Assembly: GCF_000007665.1 (NCBI RefSeq)
Contig: NC_006087.1
Coordinates: 930,001-994,000, forward strand
DNA length: 64,000 nt
Direction of reading: 5' to 3'
From: Leifsonia xyli subsp. xyli str. CTCB07
GTDB lineage: Bacteria; Actinomycetota; Actinomycetes; Actinomycetales; Microbacteriaceae
The notes beneath the pieces are model-generated. The model ran no database searches and was not told the DNA's origin. It saw only the letters and a program-made list of their open reading frames with translations. The translations under genes and the position numbers were made by a program. Shown one piece after another: positions 1,980-33,067 of this stretch (position 1 is its first letter; the number at the start of each line of letters is the position of its first letter).

Positions 1980-3524
1980 TCAGTTCGCGTTGAGCCGCCG
2001 CACCCACGCCTCCACGTCGTTCGCGGTGCGCGGGATGCCGATCGACAGGTTCTCGGCGCCGTCCCCGGTGACCAGAATGTTGTCTTCGATGCGCACGCCG
2101 ATCCCGCGGAAGCTCTCCGGCACGGTCAGATCGTCCGGCTGGAAGTACAGCCCTGGCTCGATCGTGAACGTCATCCCCGCCTCCAGCACGCCGTCGAGGT
2201 AGAGCTCGCGGCGAGCCTGCGCGCAGTCGTGTATATCGAGCCCCAGGTGGTGACTCGTGCCGTGAACCATATAGCGCCGGTGGTGCTGGTTGTCGGCTTC
2301 GAGCGCCTGCTCGGCAGTCACCGGCAGCAGGCCCCACTCTGCCGTGCGGCGGGCGATCACGGCCATCGCGGTCGCGTGGATCTCGCGGAATCGGATGCTG
2401 GGCTTCACGATCGCGAACGCCGCGTCTGCGGCCTCCCGCACCGCCTCGTACACCAGCCGCTGAGTCTCGGTGAAAGTGCCGTTGATCGGGAAGGTGCGCG
2501 TGATGTCCGCGGTGTAGTAGCTGTCGACCTCGACGCCAGCGTCGAGAAGGATGAGATCGCCCGGGATGACCGGCCCATCGTTGCGCGTCCAGTGCAGGAT
2601 GCAGGCATGCGGACCGCTTGCGGCGATCGTGTCGTAGCCGACCGCGTTGCCGTCGGCGCGCGCCCGGCCGTTGAAGACCCCCTCGACGAGGCGCTCGCCG
2701 CGCGGGTGCGCGACAATGCGCGGCAGGTCGGCGATCACGTCGTCGAAGCCGCGCGCGGTGGCTGCGACAGCGGCGCGCAGCTCGCCGATCTCGAAGGCGT
2801 CTTTGACGAGGCGCAGCTCGGAGAGCTTGCGCGCGAGGCGGTCGTCGCCGGCGCGGTCCTCGGGGTCGAATTCGGCACCGTCCCCCGCGGCGAGGAGCAG
2901 CCGGGCGCCGTCCACCCGGTCGGTGAGCGCCGGGTCGGCTTCGCGCAGCACGAGCGTGTCCGCGTCCACGGCGTCCAGCACGGCCTCCACGGCGGCGATC
3001 CCGCGGGTCGGCAGGCCCAGGTCGCTCTCGACCTGGGCGAGTGAGGGGCGCGGACCGATCCAGAACTCGCCGATCTCCGGGTTCGCGTAGAACTCGTCGG
3101 AGTCTCGGCCGGCGCGCTCGCGGAAGTAGAGGGTCGCCTCGTGCCCGGCGGCGGTCGGCTCCAGCACCAGCACGCTGCCCGGCTCGGAGTCCGACTCCCA
3201 GCCGGTGAGGTGCGCGAACGCCGAGTGGGCCCGGAAAGCGTAGTCGGTGTCGTTCGAGCGCTGTTTCAGCCGCCCGGCCGGGACGATGAGGCGCTTGCCG
3301 CGGAAGAGCTTCGACACGCGCGCACGGCGGGCGGCCGCGAAACCGGCTTGCTCGCGGACGCCGGGGAGAGCCTCGGGGCGCTCGGCCCAGTCGCGGCCGA
3401 TGTACTCCTTGAAAGCCGCTGACCCGGGCGTGGTGGACCGGTTCGCCGTGGCGCGGGGGGCTTCCTCGGCGGGCGAGGCATCGGACGGCGAGACAGTGGG
3501 GTTCTGGGAGGACATGCCGACCAT
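1980..3524 (-). CDS. pepP: Xaa-Pro aminopeptidase (aminopeptidase P)
   Basis: 514 aa cytosolic M24B metallopeptidase that removes N-terminal residues preceding proline. The AMP_N domain spans about 60-240 and the pita-bread catalytic domain about 265-505. All five dinuclear-metal ligands can be read: Asp in LLDAG, Asp in TADITRT, His in HGTSHHLGLD, Glu in TIEPGLYF and Glu in RIEDNI. The frame is open further upstream to 4424, but the start at 3524 has a strong AGGAG 7 nt away; a second ATG lies at 3515. The first 45 residues are Ser/Pro/Ala-rich and disordered-looking. It is divergent from the PHP gene with 24 bp between starts, so its promoter must lie inside that gene. Confidence 0.93.
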   Translation of the reverse strand: MVGMSSQNPTVSPSDASPAEEAPRATANRSTTPGSAAFKEYIGRDWAERPEALPGVREQAGFAAARRARVSKLFRGKRLIVPAGRLKQRSNDTDYAFRAHSAFAHLTGWESDSEPGSVLVLEPTAAGHEATLYFRERAGRDSDEFYANPEIGEFWIGPRPSLAQVESDLGLPTRGIAAVEAVLDAVDADTLVLREADPALTDRVDGARLLLAAGDGAEFDPEDRAGDDRLARKLSELRLVKDAFEIGELRAAVAATARGFDDVIADLPRIVAHPRGERLVEGVFNGRARADGNAVGYDTIAASGPHACILHWTRNDGPVIPGDLILLDAGVEVDSYYTADITRTFPINGTFTETQRLVYEAVREAADAAFAIVKPSIRFREIHATAMAVIARRTAEWGLLPVTAEQALEADNQHHRRYMVHGTSHHLGLDIHDCAQARRELYLDGVLEAGMTFTIEPGLYFQPDDLTVPESFRGIGVRIEDNILVTGDGAENLSIGIPRTANDVEAWVRRLNAN

Positions 3525-3532
3525 TCTCCCAC

Positions 3533-3540
3533 TCCTAGGA
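3533..3540. promoter_or_regulatory. Shared palindromic Shine-Dalgarno for two divergent genes
   Basis: The string TCCTAGGA carries AGGAG-type pairing on the minus strand (7 nt before the pepP ATG at 3524) and AGGA on the plus strand (8 nt before the PHP ATG at 3549). The same six-base palindrome CCTAGG therefore seems to serve both genes. There is no room for promoters between the two starts. Confidence 0.6.
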
Positions 3541-3548
3541 TGGACTGT

Positions 3549-4418
3549 ATGGCAGCTGAGCGACGCTTCCGCGCTCCGGCCGATCTGCACACGCACTCCA
3601 CCGTGTCGGACGGCACGGACACTCCGGGCGAGCTCGTCCGCGCCGCTGCGGCGGCCGGTCTCGGCACGGTCGCGCTCACCGATCACGACTCCACCGCCGG
3701 CTGGCTGGACGCGGCCGCCGCCGGAGCCGAGGCCGCCGTCACCGTCCTCCCCGGCATGGAGCTCTCCACCCGCCTCGATTTCGCGAGCGTCCACCTGCTG
3801 GGCTACCTGTTTGACCCCGAGGACGCCGCGCTCGCGGCCGAGACGCAGCGCGTCCGCGACGGCCGACGCTGCCGGGCGGAGGACATGGTGCGCCGCATCG
3901 CGGAGGACTACGACATCACGTGGGACGATGTGCTCGCCCAGGTCGCGGAGGGCGCGACCGTGGGCAGGCCGCACATCGCGGACGCGCTGGTCGCCCGCGG
4001 ACTGGTCGAGAGCAGGAGCGCGGCGTTCGCCGGAGTCCTCCACTGGCGGAGCGGCTATGTCTGGCCGCACTACGCTCCCGAGCCGCTGACGGGTGTGCGG
4101 CTGATCCGGGAGGCCGGGGGCGTCCCGGTGCTTGCGCACCCCGCGACGTGCGGCCGCGGCACTGTCATCCCGGAGGAGCGGCTGCGCCGCCTGGTCGACG
4201 CCGGGCTCTTCGGCCTCGAACTCGACCATCGCGAGAACCGGCCGGCCGGCGTTGCGCTCCTCCGCGAACTGGCTGCGAAATACGGCCTCGCGGTCACCGG
4301 CTCCAGCGACTATCACGGTTTTGGGAAACCCAATCGTCTCGGAGAGAACACCACCGATCCGGCCGTCGTGGACCGGATGATCGAAGAAGCGACAGGCGCG
4401 GCACCTTTCTTCGCGTGA
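3549..4418 (+). CDS. PHP-domain phosphoesterase (RNase AM/TrpH-like)
   Basis: 289 aa. Complete PHP metal-binding set: LHTHSTVSDG at about 14, TDHDS at about 45, GMELS at about 75, AHPATCG at about 197 and SSDYHG near 257. This architecture matches the YciV/TrpH family (3',5'-nucleotide bisphosphate phosphatase, 5'-3' exonuclease on short RNA); the substrate here is inferred. The ATG at 3549 is preferred over that at 3540 because AGGA at 3537-3540 is 8 nt upstream. It follows no gene on its strand and stands divergent from pepP. Confidence 0.85.
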   Translation: MAAERRFRAPADLHTHSTVSDGTDTPGELVRAAAAAGLGTVALTDHDSTAGWLDAAAAGAEAAVTVLPGMELSTRLDFASVHLLGYLFDPEDAALAAETQRVRDGRRCRAEDMVRRIAEDYDITWDDVLAQVAEGATVGRPHIADALVARGLVESRSAAFAGVLHWRSGYVWPHYAPEPLTGVRLIREAGGVPVLAHPATCGRGTVIPEERLRRLVDAGLFGLELDHRENRPAGVALLRELAAKYGLAVTGSSDYHGFGKPNRLGENTTDPAVVDRMIEEATGAAPFFA

Positions 4419-23545: not shown

Positions 23546-26509
23546 GTGACGTCAGCAGCTGCAGTTCGATCCCCAGGACGCCGTCGGGCGGCCGTCTGGA
23601 CCACTCTCGGGGTGATCGTGGCGCTGGTGATCCTGTTCTTCATCTTCGCCGGACTGTACGCTGACATCCTCTGGTATCAGCAGTTCGGCTTCCTCAGCGT
23701 GTTGACAACGCAGTGGTTCGCGGCCATCGCGATGTTCTTCGTCGGATTCCTGGGGATGGCCCTGCCGCTCTGGGTCGTCATCCAGCTGGCGTACCGGCTG
23801 CGCCCTGTCTACGCGAAGCTCAACAGTCAGCTGGACCGTTACCAGCAGGTGATCGAGCCGCTGCGGCGGCTCGCGATGTACGGCATCCCGATCGTTTTCG
23901 GGATTTTCGCGGGTGTCTCGGCGGCCAGCCGCTGGCAGACGGCCGCGATGTGGATCAACGGCACGCCGTACGGCAAAACGGACCCGCTCTTCCACCTCGA
24001 CATCGGCTTCTACTTGTTCGCGCTGCCGTTCTACCGCAGTGCGGTCGGCTTCGCCTCGGCGGTCGTCCTCATTTCGCTGCTTGCCACGCTCGCGACCTGC
24101 TATCTGTACGGCTCGATCCGGCTCAGTGGCCGTGAGGTGCGCATCGCCCGGGCGGCCCGGGTGCAGATCTCGGTCATTGCCGCCGTCTACCTGCTGCTCC
24201 AGGGTGTGAGCGTCTGGCTGGATCGCTATGCCACCGTGACCGATGCCAATGTCAACAATATGATCAACGGCGCGGCCTACACCGACGTGAGCGCGACGAT
24301 CCCGGGCCAGGCCGTGCTGGCCGTCGCCGCCGTGTTCGTGGCCCTCCTCTTCGCTGTCACCGCGTTCACCGGCCGCTGGCGGTTCCCGGTCGTCGGAACC
24401 GCGCTGCTTATCGTGGCCGCTCTCGTCATTGGCGCGATCTACCCGTGGGCGATCCAGCGCTTCCAGGTGGAGCCGAGCCAGAAGACACTCGAGACGCCGT
24501 ACATCCAGGACTCCATCGAAGCCACCCGGGACGCCTACGGCCTGAGCGATATCGACGTTGTTCCGTACAACGCCACGACGAGCGCCGAAGCGGGCGCTCT
24601 GCGGCAGGACGCTCAGACCACCGCGCAGATCCGGATCATGGACCCGGCCGTCATCAGCCCGTCGTTCCAGCAGCTGCAGCAGTTCCGCCAGTACTACTCG
24701 TTCCCGCGGAACCTCAATGTCGACCGCTACACTCTCAATGGCAGCCAACAGGACGCCGTGGTCTCGGTGCGCGAGCTGAACCAGTCGGGCCTCACCAGCC
24801 GCAGCTGGTACAACGACACGGTCGTCTACACCCACGGCTACGGGATGGTCGCCGCGTACGGCAACCAGCGCTCCAGCGACGGCCAGCCCGTGTTCATGGA
24901 GTACGGCATCCCGACCCAGGGGACGTTCGGCGCATACGAACCGCGCGTCTACTTCGGCCAGCAGTCGCCGACCTACTCCATCGTGGGAGCGCAGAAGAGC
25001 GCCAAATCCATCGAACTCGACTACCCCGGTGGCGACAACGACGCCCAGCAGACATACACCACCTTCAGTGGCGACGGCGGTCCAAAGCTCGACAACATCT
25101 TCAATCGTCTGGTCTATGCGCTGAAGTTCCAGGACGAGCAGATCGTCCTCTCCACCGCCGTCAACAAGGACTCGCAGATCCTCTATGATCGCGACCCGAT
25201 CAAGCGCGTGAAGAAGGCGGCCCCCTACCTGACGATGGACTCGCAGGCCTACCCCGCCGTCATCGACGGCCGCATCAAATGGGTCGTCGACGGGTACACC
25301 ACGAGCAATCAGTTCCCCTATTCGCACGTCGGCAGCCTGAGCGATGCCATCGCAGACACCGAGACGCCGAAGTCGGCCTATGCCTTCGACGACATCAACT
25401 ACATCCGAAACTCGGTGAAGGCGACCGTGGACGCTTACGACGGCTCGGTCACGCTTTACGCCTGGGATGCCAAGGACCCGGTGCTGAAGACCTGGCAGAA
25501 GATCTTCCCGTCGACCATCAAGCCGATCAGTGCTATGAGCGCCCAGCTGCTTCAGCATGTGCGCTACCCGTCTGATCTGTTCAAGGTGCAGCGCTCGGTG
25601 CTGGGCCAGTATCACGTCACCGACGCGGGTTCCTTCTACTCGCGAGACGACGCCTGGACGACGCCGAACGACCCCACCTCGTCACCGACGGACCCGACAC
25701 TGCAACCGCCGTACTACCTGACGATGCAGATGCCGGGACAGAAAGCTCCGACGTTCTCGCTCTACACCACGTTCATCCCGCAGGCCGCGAGCGACTCCAG
25801 CCGGTCGATCCTGAAAGGCTATCTGGCGGTGGACGCGGACGCCGGCTCGACCAAGGGAAAAGTGGCCCCTGGCTACGGCAAGCTCAGACTCCTTTCGCTT
25901 CCCTCCAGCGACACCATCCCGGGGCCGGGGCAGGTGCAGAACAACTTCAACTCCGATCCGACCGTGTCTCAGGAACTTAACCTGCTGAGACAGGGCAAGA
26001 CGGATGTGACCAACGGCAACCTCCTCACATTGCCGGTGGGAGGTGGCCTGTTGTATGTGCAGCCGGTCTACGTCAAATCGACCGGTGAGACCAGCTACCC
26101 GATCCTGCAGAAGGTTCTCGTCGCCTTCGGCGACAAGATCGCGTTCGAGGACACCCTGGACCAGGCGCTCGACTCGCTGTTCGGCGGCGACTCGGGCGCG
26201 ACGGCCGGCGACAACAATGTCCCGGCCACGCCCGGTGGCTCCGGCGGCGGATCGAGTGGCGACGCTGGCTCCAGTGCCGGGGGTGGATCGAGCGGTGGGG
26301 GCGGATCGAGTGCCGGTGGGTCGAGCAGCGGCTCGGGTTCCTCGGGGACGCAGAGCAACGCCGCCCTGCAAAGGGCGCTTCAGCAGGCCAAGCAGGCGCT
26401 CTCCGACCGGGAAGCGGCGCTGAAGGCCGGCGATTGGGCCGCCTACGGCGCGGCGGACTCCCGCTTGCAGCAGGCCCTGCAAGCCGCCATCGCCGCAGAA
26501 GGAAGATAG
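23546..26509 (+). CDS. UPF0182 large membrane protein
   Basis: 987 aa, GTG start. Seven hydrophobic segments in the first 300 residues (for example LGVIVALVILFFIFAG, then QWFAAIAMFFVGF) precede a large external domain and a Gly/Ser-rich linker (about 890-935) with a final Ala/Gln helix. The sequence follows the UPF0182 (Rv3193c-like) family throughout (YADILWYQQFGF near 35). Role unknown, probably envelope. TAGGAT at about 23501 could be the -10. Confidence 0.9.
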   Translation: MTSAAAVRSPGRRRAAVWTTLGVIVALVILFFIFAGLYADILWYQQFGFLSVLTTQWFAAIAMFFVGFLGMALPLWVVIQLAYRLRPVYAKLNSQLDRYQQVIEPLRRLAMYGIPIVFGIFAGVSAASRWQTAAMWINGTPYGKTDPLFHLDIGFYLFALPFYRSAVGFASAVVLISLLATLATCYLYGSIRLSGREVRIARAARVQISVIAAVYLLLQGVSVWLDRYATVTDANVNNMINGAAYTDVSATIPGQAVLAVAAVFVALLFAVTAFTGRWRFPVVGTALLIVAALVIGAIYPWAIQRFQVEPSQKTLETPYIQDSIEATRDAYGLSDIDVVPYNATTSAEAGALRQDAQTTAQIRIMDPAVISPSFQQLQQFRQYYSFPRNLNVDRYTLNGSQQDAVVSVRELNQSGLTSRSWYNDTVVYTHGYGMVAAYGNQRSSDGQPVFMEYGIPTQGTFGAYEPRVYFGQQSPTYSIVGAQKSAKSIELDYPGGDNDAQQTYTTFSGDGGPKLDNIFNRLVYALKFQDEQIVLSTAVNKDSQILYDRDPIKRVKKAAPYLTMDSQAYPAVIDGRIKWVVDGYTTSNQFPYSHVGSLSDAIADTETPKSAYAFDDINYIRNSVKATVDAYDGSVTLYAWDAKDPVLKTWQKIFPSTIKPISAMSAQLLQHVRYPSDLFKVQRSVLGQYHVTDAGSFYSRDDAWTTPNDPTSSPTDPTLQPPYYLTMQMPGQKAPTFSLYTTFIPQAASDSSRSILKGYLAVDADAGSTKGKVAPGYGKLRLLSLPSSDTIPGPGQVQNNFNSDPTVSQELNLLRQGKTDVTNGNLLTLPVGGGLLYVQPVYVKSTGETSYPILQKVLVAFGDKIAFEDTLDQALDSLFGGDSGATAGDNNVPATPGGSGGGSSGDAGSSAGGGSSGGGGSSAGGSSSGSGSSGTQSNAALQRALQQAKQALSDREAALKAGDWAAYGAADSRLQQALQAAIAAEGR

Positions 26510-26664: not shown

Positions 26665-26741
26665 TGGTTGCGGGGGCAGGATTTGAACCTACGACCTCTG
26701 GGTTATGAGCCCAGCGAGCTACCGAGCTGCTCCACCCCGCG
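26665..26741 (-). tRNA. Initiator tRNA-Met (fMet), anticodon CAT
   Basis: 77 nt on the minus strand with encoded CCA. It starts CGCGGGGTGGAGCAG and ends CCCCCGCAACCA. The C1 x A72 mismatch and three G-C pairs in the anticodon stem (GGGCTCATAACCC) mark it as initiator tRNA. TAGAGT at 26753-26758 on the minus strand could be its -10. Confidence 0.95.
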
Positions 26742-26752
26742 TCACAATAATG

Positions 26753-26839
26753 ACTCTAGCACGGCTTCCGTGACCCTCGAAATCGGGGTCACCGACCGGG
26801 CGCGTCTCTGTATCGGTAGAACGCTCGTCCCAGTATGCT
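26753..26839. promoter_or_regulatory. Divergent promoter region with inverted repeat
   Basis: Between tRNA-fMet and the receiver/PIG-L operon. A minus-strand -10 TAGAGT sits at 26753-26758 and a plus-strand -10-like TATGCT at 26834-26839. GTGACCC (26770-26776) and GGGTCAC (26786-26792) form an inverted repeat around TCGAAATCG, a candidate operator for a response regulator. Confidence 0.4.
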
Positions 26840-26861: not shown

Positions 26862-27929
26862 ATGGCGAATGCCTTTGAGAAGTATCGTGTTTGTGTGATC
26901 GAGGACGATCCGGATGTCGCCTTCTACATGAAGACCGTGCTCGAGAAGCGCGCGGACGCCCAGGTGGAGGCGGTCACCGATCCGTCCATTGCGCTGGAGA
27001 CCATCGCGGCGTTCGAGCCGGATCTCGTTCTGACGGACATCGAGATGCCGGGCGTCTCCGGACTGGAACTGCTGCGCGAACTGCGCGTGACCCATCCCGG
27101 GATGCCGGTCGTCATCATGACGGCGCACGTCTCGATCGACTACGCGGTCTCGGCGCTGCGTTCGCAGGCTGACTATTTTGTCACGAAGCCCATCAACTCG
27201 ACCGAACTGGTGTCGATTGTGCGGCGGCTCGCCGAGGAGGGCCGGGCGAACCGCTCGGCGCAGAATCAGCAGGTCGTCCTCGCGATCGGCGCGCATCCCG
27301 ACGATATCGAGATCGGCATCGGCGGCCTCCTGGCCGCGCACCGGGATGCCGGCAACCAAGTCGTTATGCTCACCCTCTCACGCGGTGCGCGCGGCGGCGA
27401 CGCCGACGACCGTCAGCACGAATCCCTCGCGGCCGCGGAGCTGCTCGGTGCGCGCCTCTTCCTCGAAGACATCGAGGACACGCAGGTCTCGGCCGCCGAT
27501 CCGACGGTGAGCATCATCGAGCGAGTGGTGAACGAGGTGCAGCCGGACATCGTCTACACGCACTCCGAGCACGACCGCCATCAGGACCATCGCGCCGTGC
27601 ATGCCGCGACGAACGTGGCCACCCGCTCGGTGCGCACGGTGTGCTGCTACCAGAGCCCTTCTGCGACGAGCGACTTCCGGCCGACCCGGTTCGTCCCGAT
27701 CGACGACTTCACCGAGATGAAGCTGCGGCTCATCGACTGCTTCCGCTCGCAGACCGAGGTGCGCGCCTACCTCGAACCCGACTTCGTGCTCGCGACGGCC
27801 CGCTACTGGTCGCGTTTCGGCGGTGGCACGAGCTGCGAGCCCCTGGAAGTGATGTGTGACACCGCGGACATCTCCGTGCCCACCTCAACGATGCAGACCG
27901 GCGCCCGACTCAGAAGGACCCACGAATGA
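26862..27929 (+). CDS. Receiver domain fused to PIG-L (LmbE-type) deacetylase
   Basis: 355 aa; AAAGGGA precedes the ATG. Residues 8-125 are a complete CheY-like receiver: acidic pocket EDD 14-16, phosphoacceptor D59 in LVLTDIEMPG, MTAH and K109 in TKP. Residues 137-320 are a PIG-L N-deacetylase with the zinc motif AHPDD at 144-148 and HxxH in DRHQDHRAVH (about 238-247). PIG-L enzymes remove acetyl groups from GlcNAc-type sugars (MshB, LmbE). The fusion implies deacetylation controlled by phosphorylation; the substrate is unknown. First gene of a coupled operon (ATGA with the next gene). Confidence 0.85.
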   Translation: MANAFEKYRVCVIEDDPDVAFYMKTVLEKRADAQVEAVTDPSIALETIAAFEPDLVLTDIEMPGVSGLELLRELRVTHPGMPVVIMTAHVSIDYAVSALRSQADYFVTKPINSTELVSIVRRLAEEGRANRSAQNQQVVLAIGAHPDDIEIGIGGLLAAHRDAGNQVVMLTLSRGARGGDADDRQHESLAAAELLGARLFLEDIEDTQVSAADPTVSIIERVVNEVQPDIVYTHSEHDRHQDHRAVHAATNVATRSVRTVCCYQSPSATSDFRPTRFVPIDDFTEMKLRLIDCFRSQTEVRAYLEPDFVLATARYWSRFGGGTSCEPLEVMCDTADISVPTSTMQTGARLRRTHE

Positions 27930-28937
27930 CAGTCCCCCCGACCCGCGTGCTCGTGACCGGAGCGGGAGGTCCCGCGGGGATCGCGGTGATCCGCTCGCTG
28001 CTGAAGCGAGAGGATGTCGAGGTCCTCGCCGCCGATATGGACGGCTGGGCCAGCGGACTGTACCTGGTTCCCGGCGGTGATCGCCGTATCGTGCCCGCCG
28101 GGCGCTCCGAATCGTTCGTGGACGAGGTGATCGGGATGTGCCGCGACGACTTCGTCGACGTCCTCTTCTCGACCGTCGATGTCGAGCTGCCGGGCCTCGC
28201 CGCGCGCCGCGACCGATCTCGCCGCCGTCGGCACCGCCCTCGCCGCCCCGAGCCACGAGACGCTCGTCACCTGCCTCGACAAGCACCGGCTGGCGACGGC
28301 CGTCGACGGCTGGGCCCGCATCCCGCTCACGCGGCTGCTGAACCGTGCCGGGAAGAGCGAGGACTGGACCTTCCCGGTCATCGTCAAACCGCGCAGCGGC
28401 GCCGGCTCACGCGGGGTGCGCCTGATCGCCGATCGTGTGCGGCTGGAGGCGCTGGACGACGATGACAGCATCCTGATCCAGGAGAACCTGCCCGGTGAGG
28501 AGTTCTCGGTGGATGTGCTGGCCGGTCTCGACGGTTCGGTCATCGCCGCCGTTCCCCGCTCGCGCGAGAGCGTCGATTCCGGTGTGTCGATCGCAGGACG
28601 GACGCTGCGCCGTGCGGAGCTGGAGGAAACGGCCGCCGCTGTCGCCCGCGCCATCGGCCTGACCGGCGTCGCGAACGTCTAGCTGCGCTACAGCGCGGAC
28701 GGGGTGCCAGCTCTTCTGGAGGTCAACCCGCGCTTCCCGGGGACGATGCCGCTGACCATCGCGGCGGGGGTCGATATGCCGGCTCTGTTGTTGGACCTCG
28801 TCCTCGGCCGTCCCGTGCGGTCCACGGTGGACTTCGTGGAGCTCGCCAATGTGCGCTTCCTTGAAGACGTCTTCCTGGACCCAGCGGAGGTGCTCGTCTC
28901 CGAGAACGCCGCGCACTCGGAAGGTCCCGGCAAATGA
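27926..28937 (+). pseudogene. ATP-grasp ligase (CarB-like), frameshift plus nonsense
   Basis: Begins at the ATG at 27926 overlapping the previous stop. N-terminal Rossmann part VLVTGAGGPAGIAVI is read to about 28195, then the protein continues one frame over (ATDLAAVGTALAAP, CLDKHRLATAVDGW, FPVIVKPRSGAGSRGV, IQENLPGEEFSVDV). A TAG at 28680-28682 replaces what looks like a Gln codon, after which the same frame goes on with VPALLEVNPRFPGTMPLT and stops at 28937. Restoring both gives an ATP-grasp carboxylate-amine ligase of about 337 aa. It would have supplied a ligation step between the deacetylase and the PHP enzyme. Confidence 0.8.
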
Positions 28938-29677
28938 CAGATCCGCTCCGTGGCGACTTTCACGTCCACTCCATCTTCTCGGACGACGCGCGGAGCACGC
29001 TCACGGAGAACATCGCTGCGGCACAAGCGGCCGGCCTGGAGCGGCTGCGGCTGACCGATCACGTCCGAGCGTCCACGACGTGGGTGCCCGAGTTCCTCGC
29101 GGCGGTAGCCGCGGAGTCCGTGCCGGAAGGGCTCACCGTCCTCACCGGTGTCGAGGCGAAGCTGCTGGATGTGTCCGGGGCGGGCGACGTCCCGGCCGAT
29201 CTCGTCGTCGGACCGGGCGGCGTCGGCGCTGTGGTCATCGGCGACCACCAGTTCCTCGGCCCAGACGGACCCTGGTCGCCAGAGACGACGCGCGCCCGGA
29301 TCGCTGCCGGACTCTCCCCGGACGACGCGCTCGACCTGCTGGTGACTGCCAGCGTCCGGGCGATGCAGCGCACGCCGAACGCGCAGCTCGCGCACTGGTT
29401 CTCGATCCTGCCCAAGGTGGGTCTCAGCGAGGATCAGCTCGGCGACGACCGGCTGCTCGCTTGGGCCACCGCCGCGACCGCGACCGGCACGATCGTCGAG
29501 GTCAACGAGAAGTGGGACTGCCCGGGACCCGCTGCCGTCGCTGCGCTCCAGAGCGTTGGAGCGCGTATCGTCGCCTCCACCGATAGCCACCAGGCCGGCG
29601 ATGTCGGCCGGTATGAGCGCGTGAGCGCCATCCTCGATGCGGCTGCCGTCATCCGGCAGCCGAAGGGAGACCGATGA
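28934..29677 (+). CDS. PHP-domain hydrolase of the receiver/PIG-L operon
   Basis: 247 aa, ATGA overlap with the ATP-grasp gene. PHP metal ligands are all visible: GDFHVHSIFSDD (8-19), LTDHVRAS, TGVEAKLLD, VIGDHQFLG, AHWFSI and ASTDSHQAGDV near the end. It is shorter than the PHP protein at 3549 and resembles histidinol-phosphatase-like PHP enzymes, so a phosphate monoester is the likely substrate. Intact although the neighbouring ligase is broken. Confidence 0.8.
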   Translation: MTDPLRGDFHVHSIFSDDARSTLTENIAAAQAAGLERLRLTDHVRASTTWVPEFLAAVAAESVPEGLTVLTGVEAKLLDVSGAGDVPADLVVGPGGVGAVVIGDHQFLGPDGPWSPETTRARIAAGLSPDDALDLLVTASVRAMQRTPNAQLAHWFSILPKVGLSEDQLGDDRLLAWATAATATGTIVEVNEKWDCPGPAAVAALQSVGARIVASTDSHQAGDVGRYERVSAILDAAAVIRQPKGDR

Positions 29678-29829
29678 GTCCTGTCGAACCGAATCGCAAA
29701 CAGAGCGCGATTCTCCAGCGCGAGATCGACGCGGACCGGCGCTGGGAGCGCCACCTGCCGCTGTATGCGCTGATGGCCTTCTCCGTCCTCGCGGCGATCA
29801 TTGTCGTGCGGGTGGTGTTCTTTTCGTGA
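29674..29829 (+). CDS. 51-aa single-span membrane protein
   Basis: ATG at 29674 overlaps the PHP stop (ATGA). The first 30 residues are charged (NRKQSAILQREIDADRRWER) and the rest is one hydrophobic helix (LPLYALMAFSVLAAIIVV). Its stop overlaps the next GTG start. Coupling on both sides supports it as a real gene, perhaps a membrane tether for the operon's soluble partners. Confidence 0.65.
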   Translation: MSPVEPNRKQSAILQREIDADRRWERHLPLYALMAFSVLAAIIVVRVVFFS

Positions 29830-30218
29830 GCGAGCCTCTGAAGCGCGTCGTCATCGCTGATGACGACGACGATATCCGAGCCCTGATGATGATCGCCGCG
29901 GGCCGTGCTGGCGTCGAGATCGTCGCCGCCGTCGACAACGGGCTGGCTGCTCTCGCCGAGGTCCGCGCCGTTGACATCGACCTGGCCGTCCTCGACATCT
30001 CCATGCCCGGGCTCAACGAGGTCGAAGTCGCGGGGGCGATCCGCGGCGACACAGGGATGCGCAACACGCTCATCCTCATGGTGTCGGCCTCCGTGCAGCT
30101 CCTGACCGATCACGGTGTCGTTGCCGACCGCTCGGACAGCTTCATCATCAAGCCTTTCAGCCTGAGGCTGCTCTCGCAGCGCATCCGCGAGATGCTGGCG
30201 ATCGGAGAACCGGCATGA
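29826..30218 (+). CDS. Stand-alone response regulator receiver
   Basis: 130 aa, GTG start overlapping the small membrane protein. CheY-like: VVIADDDDDIRALM at the start, phosphoacceptor Asp in LAVLDISMPG (about 58), VSAS and the Lys in FIIKPF (about 109). No output domain, so it acts by protein contact. The ATG of the histidine kinase overlaps its stop, so the two form a cognate pair. Confidence 0.88.
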   Translation: MSEPLKRVVIADDDDDIRALMMIAAGRAGVEIVAAVDNGLAALAEVRAVDIDLAVLDISMPGLNEVEVAGAIRGDTGMRNTLILMVSASVQLLTDHGVVADRSDSFIIKPFSLRLLSQRIREMLAIGEPA

Positions 30219-31592
30219 CTTTCGAACGCTTGCTGAGCCGGATACCCATCGACTCCCCTTCGCCACTGATGAAGCAGCTGCCGACACTCATCGGGTTCGG
30301 CCTGGCGGTCATGCTGTCGTTCTTCCCCCAAGTGGTCACTACGATGCTGCCGCTGTACTTGTTCCTCGCGCTCGGGCTCATCGTGCTGGCGACGGTTCTC
30401 GCTGCGGTGCTGCCGTGGAACCGGCTGGGCACCCGCTGGGCGGTCATCGTCCCGATCGTCTCGATGTTCGCGGTCGGTGCGCTGCGGCTCGCGACAGACG
30501 CCTCGGCGTCGCCGTTCGTCGTGCTGACGCTGCTGCCGTTCGTTTGGATCGCGACGGAAGCGGGACGGATCAATGTGCTGTACGCCGGAGCCGGTACTTT
30601 CCTGGTGCTGCTGGAGCCGCTGGTGGTCGGGGACATCCCGACGAACGACGGGGACATCGTGCGCCTCGTCTTCTCCCCGTCCATTTACGCGATTGTGGCA
30701 CTCGTCGTCAACGAAGTGGCGCACCGGATGCGGGTCCATCTGGCGGCGGCCCGGACGGCCGCGCTTGAGCAGGAGGCCGCTCTCGCCCGGGCGGTCAAAG
30801 CGCAGGACGAGCTGGTGCTCAACGAAGCGCGGCTCAAGACGGCCAATCGGCTCATCCAGAGCGTCTGGAACGCCGTCACCGAGCAGTCAGTCATCTCGGA
30901 TCTCAACGGACTCATCGATGTGTGGAACCCCGGCGCCGAGAAGATGCTCGGCCTCACCGAGAAGCAGGTCATCGAGGGACGCCGCCACATCATTGAGTTC
31001 CACCTCGCCAGCGAGCTCGAAAGCCGGCTGCGCGATATGGACGCACAGTTCATAGCGGTTCCCAGCGTCGATGACTTCTCGGCCCTCATCGACGCGGTCC
31101 GTGCGGGCTACGCCGATATCCGGGACTGGACGTACGTGCGCGCCGACGGCAGGCATGTGCCGGTGCAGGTCGCGGCCACGCCACTCCTGGATGAGAACGG
31201 CCACCGCGTCGGCTTCATCTTCGTGGCGACGGATATGACACAGGCTTGTGAGTTCGCGCGGCTGAAAGACGAGTTCGTCGGGCTCATCTCGCACGAATTG
31301 CGGACGCCGCTCAGCAGCATCCTGGGGTTATCTGGAGCTGATGCGCGACGACGAAGAGGCGCCGCTGTCGGACAAGCATCTGCAATACCTGAGCGTCGCC
31401 GAGCGCAACGCGCACCGGCTGCTGCGGCTCGTGGGGGATCTGCTGTTCACGGCGCAGGTCGAGTCCGGTCACTTCCCCATCAGCCTCAAGGAGGCCGAGC
31501 TCTCGGCCGTCGTCGCAGCCTCGGTGGAGTCCTCCGGACCGGTCGCGGCGAACGCGAAGGTGGGGCTCCTCAGCGAGGTCTTGGGTTCTAGC
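30215..31592 (+). pseudogene. PAS sensor histidine kinase, frameshifted and truncated by an IS
   Basis: Residues 20-165 hold about five membrane segments, 210-345 a PAS domain (VISDLNGLIDVWNPGAEKML, then FIFVATDMTQACEF) and the H box follows: FVGLISHELRTPLSSILG. An extra T near 31328 shifts the frame; the dimerisation domain goes on in the next frame (YLSVAERNAHRLLRLVGDLL). The reading is cut by the left end of the IS30-type element at 31593, and the ATP-binding N and G boxes are nowhere downstream. The kinase is therefore dead, and part of it was deleted, not merely split. Confidence 0.85.
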
Positions 31593-33067
31593 GGTTGTTG
31601 CAACATCTGGAGTTTCTAGGAGTTGCAAGGACCGTGTCCCGTTTAAGGCGCAGTGCGGGGAAGAGGAAGTACACCCAGGCGGAGCGTGAAGCCTTCTTCG
31701 TCATTTTCAAGGAGTCCAGGAGTACGACGATCGCGGCGAGGGAGCTAGGGTTCAACCCCGCGACGTGCGCGCAATGGGTTCGCAAGGCGGGCCTGGCTAG
31801 TCACGGCTACACCGGCGGCGGCATGAGCGCGCACCCATGCAAGGACGAGTACCTGGAGCTGCGGAGCAGCGGGCTCTCGCGCCGCGAAGCGGTGGGACGA
31901 GTCGGAATCAGCCCGAACACGGGATACCTCTGGGACAGTCGAACGGGCGACGCATTTATCCAGATGGTCGCGTGGTCGATTACAAAGACAGGGTGCCTGT
32001 CGTTGTTGATCCTGTTCAGCGGGCGTCGATGCGTTCGCTCGAAGCCGCACTCCACCCACGATTCCTCTCCCTGCAGGAGCGTGAGCTGATCCGGGACCTG
32101 ACCAGGGCCGGCCTTTCGTTGTGTCGGGTCGCGGCCAAGCTTGGTCGCTCGGTGTCGACGATCAGTCGAGAGATTCGCCGGAATCAGCTTCCTGGAGAGG
32201 GCGGCTACCATCCATACGTGGCGCATCGGAAAGCGGCCAGCCGCCGACCGCGACCGAAAGCCACGAGGCTGGTCCGCAATCCGCAGCTGCGCAGTTACGT
32301 TCAACGGAAGCTGACGCTACGTTGGTCGCCGGAGCAGATCAGCCGGTCGCTGATCCGCGAGTTCCCCGGCGATGCGGAGATGCGCGTGGCGCACGAGACG
32401 ATCTATCAAGCCTTCTACGTGCAGGGCCGTGGACAACTCCGCCGCGAGCTCACGATGGTGCTGCGGACCGGCCGGGCCAAGCGGAAACCGCATCGTTCTG
32501 GCGCCGCTCGCAGACATCGTTTCGCGGATCCGATGGTAATGATCTCCGACCGTCCCGCCGAAATCGAGGACCGCGCCGTTCCCGGACATTGGGAAGGCGA
32601 CCTCATCATCGGCGGACACCGCAACAGCGCCATCGGCACCCTCGTGGAACGCTCCACCCGGTTCGTGATGCTGATCCATCTCCCCATCGATCGCACCGCA
32701 GAATCCGTCCGGGACGGACTGATCAGCGCCGTCAAGACACTCCCACGCGAACTCCGTCGCTCGATCACCTGGGACCAGGGCTCGGAAATGGCAGCTCACA
32801 AGTCGTTCACGATAGCCACCGACATCCCGGTCTACTTCTGCGACCCCGCGAGTCCCTGGCAACGCGGCAGCAACGAGAACACCAACGGACTCCTTCGCCA
32901 ATACTTCCCCAAGGGAAAGGGAACAGACCTCGCCCGATTCACCGCAACCGACCTGACGAACGTCGCCCACGAGCTCAACACCCGCCCACGCAAAACGCTC
33001 GGCTGGGAAACCCCAGCCGAACGCCTCGCTAAACTACTCGCCAGCTAATCGTCGTGTTGCAACAACC
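31593..33067 (+). mobile_element. IS30-family insertion sequence, about 1475 bp
   Basis: Terminal inverted repeats GGTTGTTGCAAC (31593-31604) and GTTGCAACAACC (33056-33067) bound one transposase gene. The repeat may extend by about 3 nt (AGC/AGT). No target-site duplication is seen: left flank ends GGGTTCTAGC, right flank begins ACTGGAAGATG. Together with the missing kinase 3' end this points to a deletion next to the element after insertion or recombination between copies. Confidence 0.8.
31634..33048 (+). pseudogene. IS30-family transposase, one frameshift
   Basis: N-terminal HTH part from the GTG at 31634 (KRKYTQAEREAFFVIFKES, then AARELGFNPATCAQWVRKAG) reads to about 31935; the rest is in another frame (NGRRIYPDGRVVDYKD onward). 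The second HTH (VAAKLGRSVSTISREIRRN) and the DDE core are intact: GHWEGDLIIG, TWDQGSEM and SNENTNGLLRQYFPKG. Translation could restart at the ATG at 32029, giving a shorter but catalytically complete protein. Otherwise the frameshift inactivates it. Confidence 0.78.

What the first reader, a model, noticed from the sequence alone, without database searches (positions are those of the whole stretch)
26862..31592. Signalling-coupled chemistry operon: receiver/PIG-L fusion, ATP-grasp, PHP, small membrane protein, receiver, PAS kinase
Six genes in a row overlap by ATGA or GTGA, so they were built to be translated together. The fusion of a phosphorylatable receiver with a zinc N-deacetylase is rare, and the operon then adds a ligase, a phosphoesterase, a membrane tether, a stand-alone receiver and a PAS kinase. 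The order suggests a kinase that directly controls the deacetylation and conjugation of a sugar-like or amine metabolite, bypassing transcription. I know of no described system with this composition. PIG-L, ATP-grasp and PHP assignments are from motifs; the pathway is inference.
Basis: partly seen in the sequence, partly recalled or inferred. Interest (0 to 1): 0.78.

Follow-up and report, generated by a model that had tools for sequence, protein, structure and literature searches.

The report
Kinase-controlled amino-sugar operon, decaying here
A set of bacterial genes that appears to build a modified amino-sugar chain or lipid under the direct command of a membrane sensor kinase is intact in larger-genome relatives but broken in this genome, and no description of it was found in the papers searched.

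Summary
The six genes and their five 4-base overlaps are real, but here the operon is broken: the ATP-grasp gene has a frame break and a TAG; the kinase has a frame break and is cut by an IS30-family element, with its last part 464 kb away beside an identical element copy. In 24 of 24 other same-genus genomes with the full region, the six gene families checked are whole. In 299 family genomes GT2 and PHP occur in exactly the same 31; Leifsonia keeps GT2 elsewhere. The small membrane protein goes with GT2 rather than the kinase. The fusion is not rare. Its receiver is phosphorylatable in 37 of 37 loci with a same-strand kinase and 3 of 7 without. Best reading: a phosphorelay gates a deacetylase inside an amino-sugar glycan pathway; pathway order and product are inferred. 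New variant of a known kind; interest 0.62.

The parts
26862..27929 (+). Receiver + PIG-L N-deacetylase fusion, 355 aa, intact
   Evidence: Pfam PF00072 and PF02585; receiver and zinc residues present; model pLDDT 83.6, pTM 0.65; start chosen by relatives; an in-frame ATG lies upstream at 26835
27926..28937 (+). ATP-grasp (PRK12767/PylC-like) gene, BROKEN: frame break between about 28198 and 28215, TAG at 28680-28682
   Evidence: whole in 24 of 24 other full same-genus regions
28934..29677 (+). PHP-domain phosphoesterase, 247 aa, intact
   Evidence: Pfam PF02811 4.7e-08; H/D/E columns of the metal-ligand kind kept in 62 rows, all or all but one
29674..29829 (+). Small one-helix membrane protein, 51 aa; in other genera it follows GT2
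29826..30218 (+). Stand-alone receiver, 130 aa, intact
   Evidence: Pfam PF00072 3.9e-15
30215..31592 (+). Membrane PAS histidine kinase, first part only, BROKEN: frame break near 31326, cut by the insertion element
   Evidence: the last part lies outside the window at G000:C1:1425247-1425652, minus strand
31593..33067 (+). IS30-family insertion element, 1475 bp, inverted ends, transposase 31837-33048
   Evidence: NCBIfam IS30 4.9e-90; inverted repeats; 14 full identical copies in the genome
26665..26741 (-). tRNA-Met (CAT) just upstream; neighbour, not part of the operon

Best explanation
In its whole form this is a glycan-building system gated by a phosphorelay. A membrane PAS histidine kinase phosphorylates the receiver of the fusion, and in many loci one or two stand-alone receivers that share or buffer the phosphate. 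Phosphorylation switches the attached PIG-L domain, much as the receiver of CheB switches its methylesterase. The deacetylase removes the acetyl group from an N-acetylated amino sugar (GlcNAc or a short GlcNAc chain) on the cytosolic side. The ATP-grasp enzyme then joins a carboxylate, such as an amino acid, to the freed amine; the PHP enzyme removes or processes a phosphate; and the PgaC/NodC-like GT2 with its small membrane partner polymerises or exports the product. SHOWN: gene content, invariant core order outside Leifsonia, co-occurrence of GT2 with the operon even when unlinked, conserved catalytic and phosphorylation residues, decay in this genome. INFERRED: substrate, reaction order, that phosphorylation activates rather than inhibits, that the kinase phosphorylates these receivers. 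In this genome the pathway is most likely dead: the ATP-grasp, kinase, nitrilase and GT2 genes all change frame.
Against: No substrate, product or phosphotransfer was measured. GT2 scores far below the PNAG-synthase cut-off, and its nearest solved relative is a mannosyltransferase, so the sugar is open. The kinase-receiver link rests on few independent events: the four fusions without the Asp lie in one GT2 clade. Two loci with complete receivers show no kinase in the stretch held (L107, L110) and a third only one on the opposite strand (L105). PIG-L enzymes also act on glycolipids, antibiotics and thiols. The nitrilase is found in only 11 of the 43 core loci outside Leifsonia. In Leifsonia GT2 is unlinked, so co-expression is not assured.
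Confidence: 0.5

Rival explanations
1. Glycolipid rather than polysaccharide: GT2 puts one N-acetyl-amino sugar on a membrane lipid, the PIG-L domain deacetylates it (as PIG-L does on GlcNAc-PI, recalled), and ATP-grasp adds an amino acid, giving a charge-switchable surface lipid under kinase control.
For: GT2's closest solved relative by sequence and by Foldseek is the membrane mannosyltransferase PcManGT. The fusion has no obvious export signal (my reading of the letters), so it would act in the cytosol. No polymer exporter or secreted deacetylase was recognised beside the core, but most neighbours were not annotated.
Against: The D, D, D, QxxRW columns of processive GT2s are identical in all or all but one of 51 sequences (motif meaning recalled), and PgaC/IcaA and NodC head the curated matches.
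Confidence: 0.25
2. Thiol-like or small-molecule pathway analogous to mycothiol or bacillithiol synthesis (glycosyltransferase, PIG-L deacetylase, ligase), making a soluble conjugate.
For: Same three reaction classes (recalled); the PIG-L part is closest in fold to BshB and also matches MshB; the nitrilase resembles deaminated-glutathione amidase below cut-off (219 of 355 bits).
Against: The glycosyltransferase is a multi-helix membrane GT2, not a soluble MshA/BshA type (recalled); the ligase is a PRK12767-like ATP-grasp, unlike MshC and BshC (recalled).
Confidence: 0.1
3. The receiver is only a docking or dimerisation module and the kinase mainly drives transcription through another regulator; the deacetylase is not phospho-regulated.
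For: Seven of 44 charted loci with the fusion have no same-strand kinase; three of these have a degenerate receiver yet a complete zinc site, and one has no receiver at all.
Against: All five receiver signature residues are kept in 57 of 62 fusions; the stand-alone receiver in the window has no DNA-binding part (130 aa).
Confidence: 0.15
4. A chance row of unrelated genes, or a remnant without a common function.
For: In this genome several members are broken.
Against: Order, co-occurrence and selection across the family.
Confidence: 0.02

Closest known systems
Response regulators with enzymatic output: CheB, PleD, WspR
   Same: Receiver fused to an enzyme so that phosphorylation can gate chemistry directly; CheB (1a2o) and PleD appear in the fold search of the whole fusion, WspR in the second look; these align well over the receiver only
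   Different: Output is a zinc N-deacetylase; the receiver sits in a biosynthetic operon with its own kinase
Bacillithiol BshB / mycothiol MshB / diacetylchitobiose deacetylase (PIG-L family)
   Same: Fold and zinc residues
   Different: N-terminal receiver; different partner enzymes; BshB1 curated cut-off not met (83.5 of 182.5 bits)
icaADBC / pgaABCD poly-N-acetylglucosamine systems (make-up recalled)
   Same: Processive-type GT2 with a small membrane partner and a de-N-acetylase
   Different: Deacetylase is PIG-L, not a secreted polysaccharide deacetylase; ATP-grasp and PHP added; GT2 below the PgaC/IcaA cut-off
PRK12767 ATP-grasp proteins (solved relative 2pn1)
   Same: Nearly full-length match 1.5e-47; 2pn1 3.4e-40
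   Different: Below every curated cut-off listed; partners and context differ

Membership tests
Response regulator with enzymatic output domain | Receiver with acidic pair, phospho-acceptor Asp, Thr and Lys, fused to an enzyme domain | tested here: met
   E/D-D-D-T-K in 57 of 62 fusions, window included; PF02585 C-terminal
Response regulator with enzymatic output domain | Phosphorylation changes the enzyme's rate | not testable with these tools
   Needs biochemistry
PIG-L (PF02585) N-deacetylase | Curated Pfam score and AHPDD...HxDH zinc site | tested here: met
   87.9 bits against 28.2; residues H,D,D,H,D,H in the window (roles recalled)
BshB1 bacillithiol deacetylase (TIGR04001) | Curated score 182.5 bits | tested here: not met
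   83.5 bits
PgaC/IcaA poly-beta-1,6-GlcNAc synthase (TIGR03937) | Curated score 422.3 bits | tested here: not met
   127.9 bits for the operonic GT2 of L016; the works-like claim stays open
Processive GT2 synthase | D,D,D,QxxRW columns and membrane helices | tested here: met
   Columns kept in 51 sequences, all or all but one; long helices in the model and synthase fold matches; processivity itself not testable here
ica/pga operon | Secreted polysaccharide deacetylase (IcaB/PgaB type) and exporter in the operon | tested here: inconclusive
   Neighbours were listed but only 12 were printed and 5 scanned against Pfam, without such a match
Mycothiol/bacillithiol pathway | Soluble GT4 glycosyltransferase plus MshC/BshC ligase among the partner genes (recalled) | tested here: not met
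   The operon of L016 holds GT2 and a PRK12767-like ATP-grasp instead; the rest of the genome was not searched for them
Known anti-phage defence system (PADLOC) | Credible match to a defence model over a characteristic domain | tested here: not met
   Two weak hits over receiver and ATPase regions (18.5 and 22.7 bits) among 6 proteins of L016

The most novel reading that the evidence does not exclude
A two-component phosphorelay whose output is the chemistry of a glycan itself: a CheB-like receiver-deacetylase sets how many amines are exposed on an amino-sugar chain or lipid, an ATP-grasp ligase caps them with amino acids, and GT2 plus its small partner put the product on the cell surface. Surface charge would then follow a membrane signal quickly, without new transcription, and the lineage of the two small-genome Leifsonia (recalled as plant-restricted) has abandoned it.
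Probability: 0.3. Interest if true: 0.82.

Novelty: new variant of a known kind. Interest (0 to 1): 0.62.

Why it matters
If true, it is a direct signal-to-glycan switch: the sensor controls an enzyme rather than a promoter. It gives a defined, lab-tractable gene set of about seven to nine genes with a clear prediction (which glycan disappears when any one is removed). It also shows how a presence/absence match across 299 genomes can recover a pathway enzyme that has moved away from its operon. The decay in the two small-genome Leifsonia, one shared break followed by different ones, raises the question of why their way of life (recalled as xylem-dwelling) makes the system useless or harmful.

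Tried and rejected
Chance arrangement: rejected by order, co-occurrence and selection. 'Fusion is rare': rejected. 'Small protein is a kinase tether': disfavoured, since it follows GT2 also where no same-strand kinase was found (L083, L105, L107, L110, L121-L123). Defence system: PADLOC gave two weak local hits. RNA families between 25000 and 34000: only the tRNA at gathering score. My own first view that the two small genomes lost the system quite separately: corrected, which shows that the ATP-grasp frame break near residue 90 is common to both, while the other breaks differ. Literature: 8 searches on the system listed no paper describing it; five of these gave none, and searches gave 2, 1 and 1 papers, unrelated by title and start of abstract. 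on the organism listed 4 and 12 (of 215) papers, none on this operon by title and start of abstract. Only search listings were seen; no paper was opened. The large protein after GT2 in L121-L123 has no Pfam match (L121 and L123 scanned). The apparent absence of the fusion in G006 is a contig edge (L106). The split fusion of G005 lies at a contig start, with a whole copy near the other end (L063, L085); likely an untrimmed overlap, not checked further.

Rows dropped and limits: one search left the window and L055 out of the ATP-grasp columns (broken), and GT2 pieces under 380 aa were left out of the tree and columns; the first piece of this genome's own GT2 (L090) was kept in the tree. Profile searches of genomes scored only the top 4-9 candidates per genome. 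The Fisher test on kinase and receiver (p 2.6e-4) is not corrected for kinship. 'Same-strand kinase' means within the stretch held. The small-protein rule found one after GT2 in 42 of 43 core loci (none in L120); several starts it chose are too far upstream. Pairwise dN/dS is Nei-Gojobori on 3 genes and 6-7 loci, with dS near 1 for some pairs. One search calls a gene whole if one frame covers over 90% of the profile; GT2 and the small protein were not in that table.
Full report
WHAT IS THERE. The window is G000:C1:930001-994000 of a single 2,584,158-base contig. Their five junctions are ATGA, ATGA, ATGA, GTGA, ATGA. Pfam gives Response_reg + PIG-L, ATP-grasp pieces, PHP, nothing for the 51-aa protein, Response_reg, and PAS + the first part of HisKA.

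THE LOCAL COPY IS BROKEN. A relative's ATP-grasp protein matches in two frames, residues 2-87 and 93-332, and the second frame holds a TAG at 28680-28682. The kinase matches residues 1-373 and 373-457 in two frames and then ends at an IS30-family element, 31593-33067, with inverted ends. The missing kinase end and the nitrilase gene that follows it in other Leifsonia lie at G000:C1:1424452-1425652 on the minus strand, about 464 kb away, themselves in more than one frame. A 100% identical copy of the element, in opposite orientation, abuts that kinase piece at 1425663-1427137. With 14 full identical copies in the genome, the simplest reading is an inversion between two copies, one of them inside the kinase gene (inference). 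The single GT2 gene of this genome also changes frame.

WHOLE COPIES IN RELATIVES. The fusion query matched 31 of 60 genomes at E<=1e-40, the own genome included; two of them, G040 and G046, match over the deacetylase part only. Of 29 rows checked for whole genes, 24 full regions of other same-genus genomes have fusion, ATP-grasp, PHP, receiver, kinase and nitrilase each covered by one frame. Of the remaining five rows, one is the window, one is G022 (2.69 Mb, broken in fusion, ATP-grasp and kinase), two are the contig ends of G005 and one is a contig edge of G006. G000 and G022 are the two small genomes of the genus set (2.6 and 2.7 Mb against 3.6-5.1 Mb). They share the ATP-grasp frame break near residue 90, but G022 has further breaks in that gene, a stop in the fusion and a kinase break at another place, while the window alone has the TAG, the element and the earlier kinase break. 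So decay seems to have begun before the two parted and went on separately (inference). dN/dS among non-window pairs is 0.05-0.19 for the fusion, 0.16-0.27 for PHP and 0.17-0.51 for the receiver.

THE MISSING ENZYME. In Diaminobutyricibacter (L016), Nakamurella (L019) and others a GT2 glycosyltransferase stands between PHP and the small protein. A profile of it is found in 31 of 299 Microbacteriaceae genomes; a PHP profile in 31 of 299; the two sets are identical. If genomes were independent this would be a chance of about 10^-42, but kinship makes that figure far too strong; the 31 fall in 15 of 85 genera. Phylum-wide the same 3 of 396 genomes hold both, and order-wide PHP is in 20 of 396. By the coordinates, GT2 lies next after PHP on the same contig in all 25 non-Leifsonia genomes and elsewhere in all 6 Leifsonia. 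All 28 genus genomes searched have it, beside what looks like an oxidoreductase pair in the loci read (names from my reading of the letters). The Leifsonia copies and a second copy in G722 form one clade (100/100) inside the operonic Microbacteriaceae clade (100/99), so the enzyme moved or was replaced by an operon-derived copy.

ANATOMY ACROSS RELATIVES. Of 46 loci charted, 43 hold fusion-ATP-grasp-PHP-GT2 in this order on one strand. The others are L082 (fusion, two receivers and kinase only), L106 (Leifsonia G006, contig edge) and L128 (second GT2 alone). Of the 43, 36 have a kinase on the same strand, and 11 have the nitrilase up- or downstream. None to two stand-alone receivers are seen. 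By a simple rule a small membrane protein follows GT2 in 42 of 43, often overlapping its stop by 4 bases, also where no kinase is near. An alignment of 25 shows a conserved D/N-x-R-x-E stretch before one hydrophobic helix and an Arg near its end.

A NATURAL TEST OF THE COUPLING. Key residues were read from 62 fusions. The receiver signature is complete in 57. It is degenerate in L121-L123, absent in L083 and not covered in L055 (broken). All 37 charted loci with a same-strand kinase have a complete receiver; of 7 without, 3 do (Fisher 2.6e-4; uncorrected for kinship, and the four exceptions form one GT2 clade). One of the 7, L105, has a kinase on the opposite strand. The reverse case is L082: kinase and receivers kept, GT2 and PHP not found in the genome, ATP-grasp not at the locus, and the PIG-L site changed from AHPDD to AHPND and from HxDH to SxDH. 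Losing the signal side goes with losing the receiver; losing the chemistry goes with losing the zinc site. This is suggestive, from few events.

HOW IT MOST LIKELY WORKS. Kinase to receiver(s) to deacetylase; deacetylated amino sugar to ATP-grasp conjugation; PHP removes a phosphate; GT2 and its partner polymerise or transfer and export. The logic joins a CheB-like switch to a PNAG- or mycothiol-like chemistry. Polysaccharide is favoured over glycolipid by the processive-type motif and curated matches, but the nearest solved relative argues for caution. The order of steps, the sign of regulation and the product are inference.

NOVELTY. Each enzyme and signalling protein belongs to a known superfamily. 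The combination was not found in the open-licence full-text library (listings only); subscription papers are not covered. I rate it a new variant of a known kind.

Noticed in passing
window 31593-33067; G000:C1:1425663-1427137: IS30-family element with 14 full identical copies in the genome; two copies in opposite orientation abut the split parts of the kinase gene, pointing to an inversion of about 464 kb.
   Followed up: partly
L082 (G035) 2995-4005: A receiver-PIG-L fusion whose zinc site is altered (AHPND, SxDH) beside receivers and a kinase, without the biosynthetic genes: a deacetylase perhaps turned into a signalling protein.
   Followed up: partly
L121 10441-12399, L122 4805-6667, L123 10193-12100: Large protein after GT2 in the three loci with degenerate receivers; to my eye secreted in L121 and L123, no Pfam match there; it may belong to the pathway.
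   Followed up: partly
L128 (G722:C1:2492507-2493958): A second, unlinked GT2 in a genome that also has the core operon, in the same clade as the unlinked Leifsonia copies: hints at transfer of this lineage.
   Followed up: partly
L055 (G022): The other small-genome Leifsonia shares the window's ATP-grasp frame break near residue 90 but has its own breaks in fusion, ATP-grasp and kinase, while nitrilase and GT2 (L091) stay in one frame.
   Followed up: yes
window 26665-26741: The operon sits beside a tRNA-Met gene and a large membrane protein gene (23546-26509, PRK00068 family by NCBIfam, below cut-off).
   Followed up: no
L063 and L085 (G005): The fusion appears whole near the end of the contig and in three frames at its start, as expected from an untrimmed low-quality overlap of a circular chromosome.
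   Followed up: no
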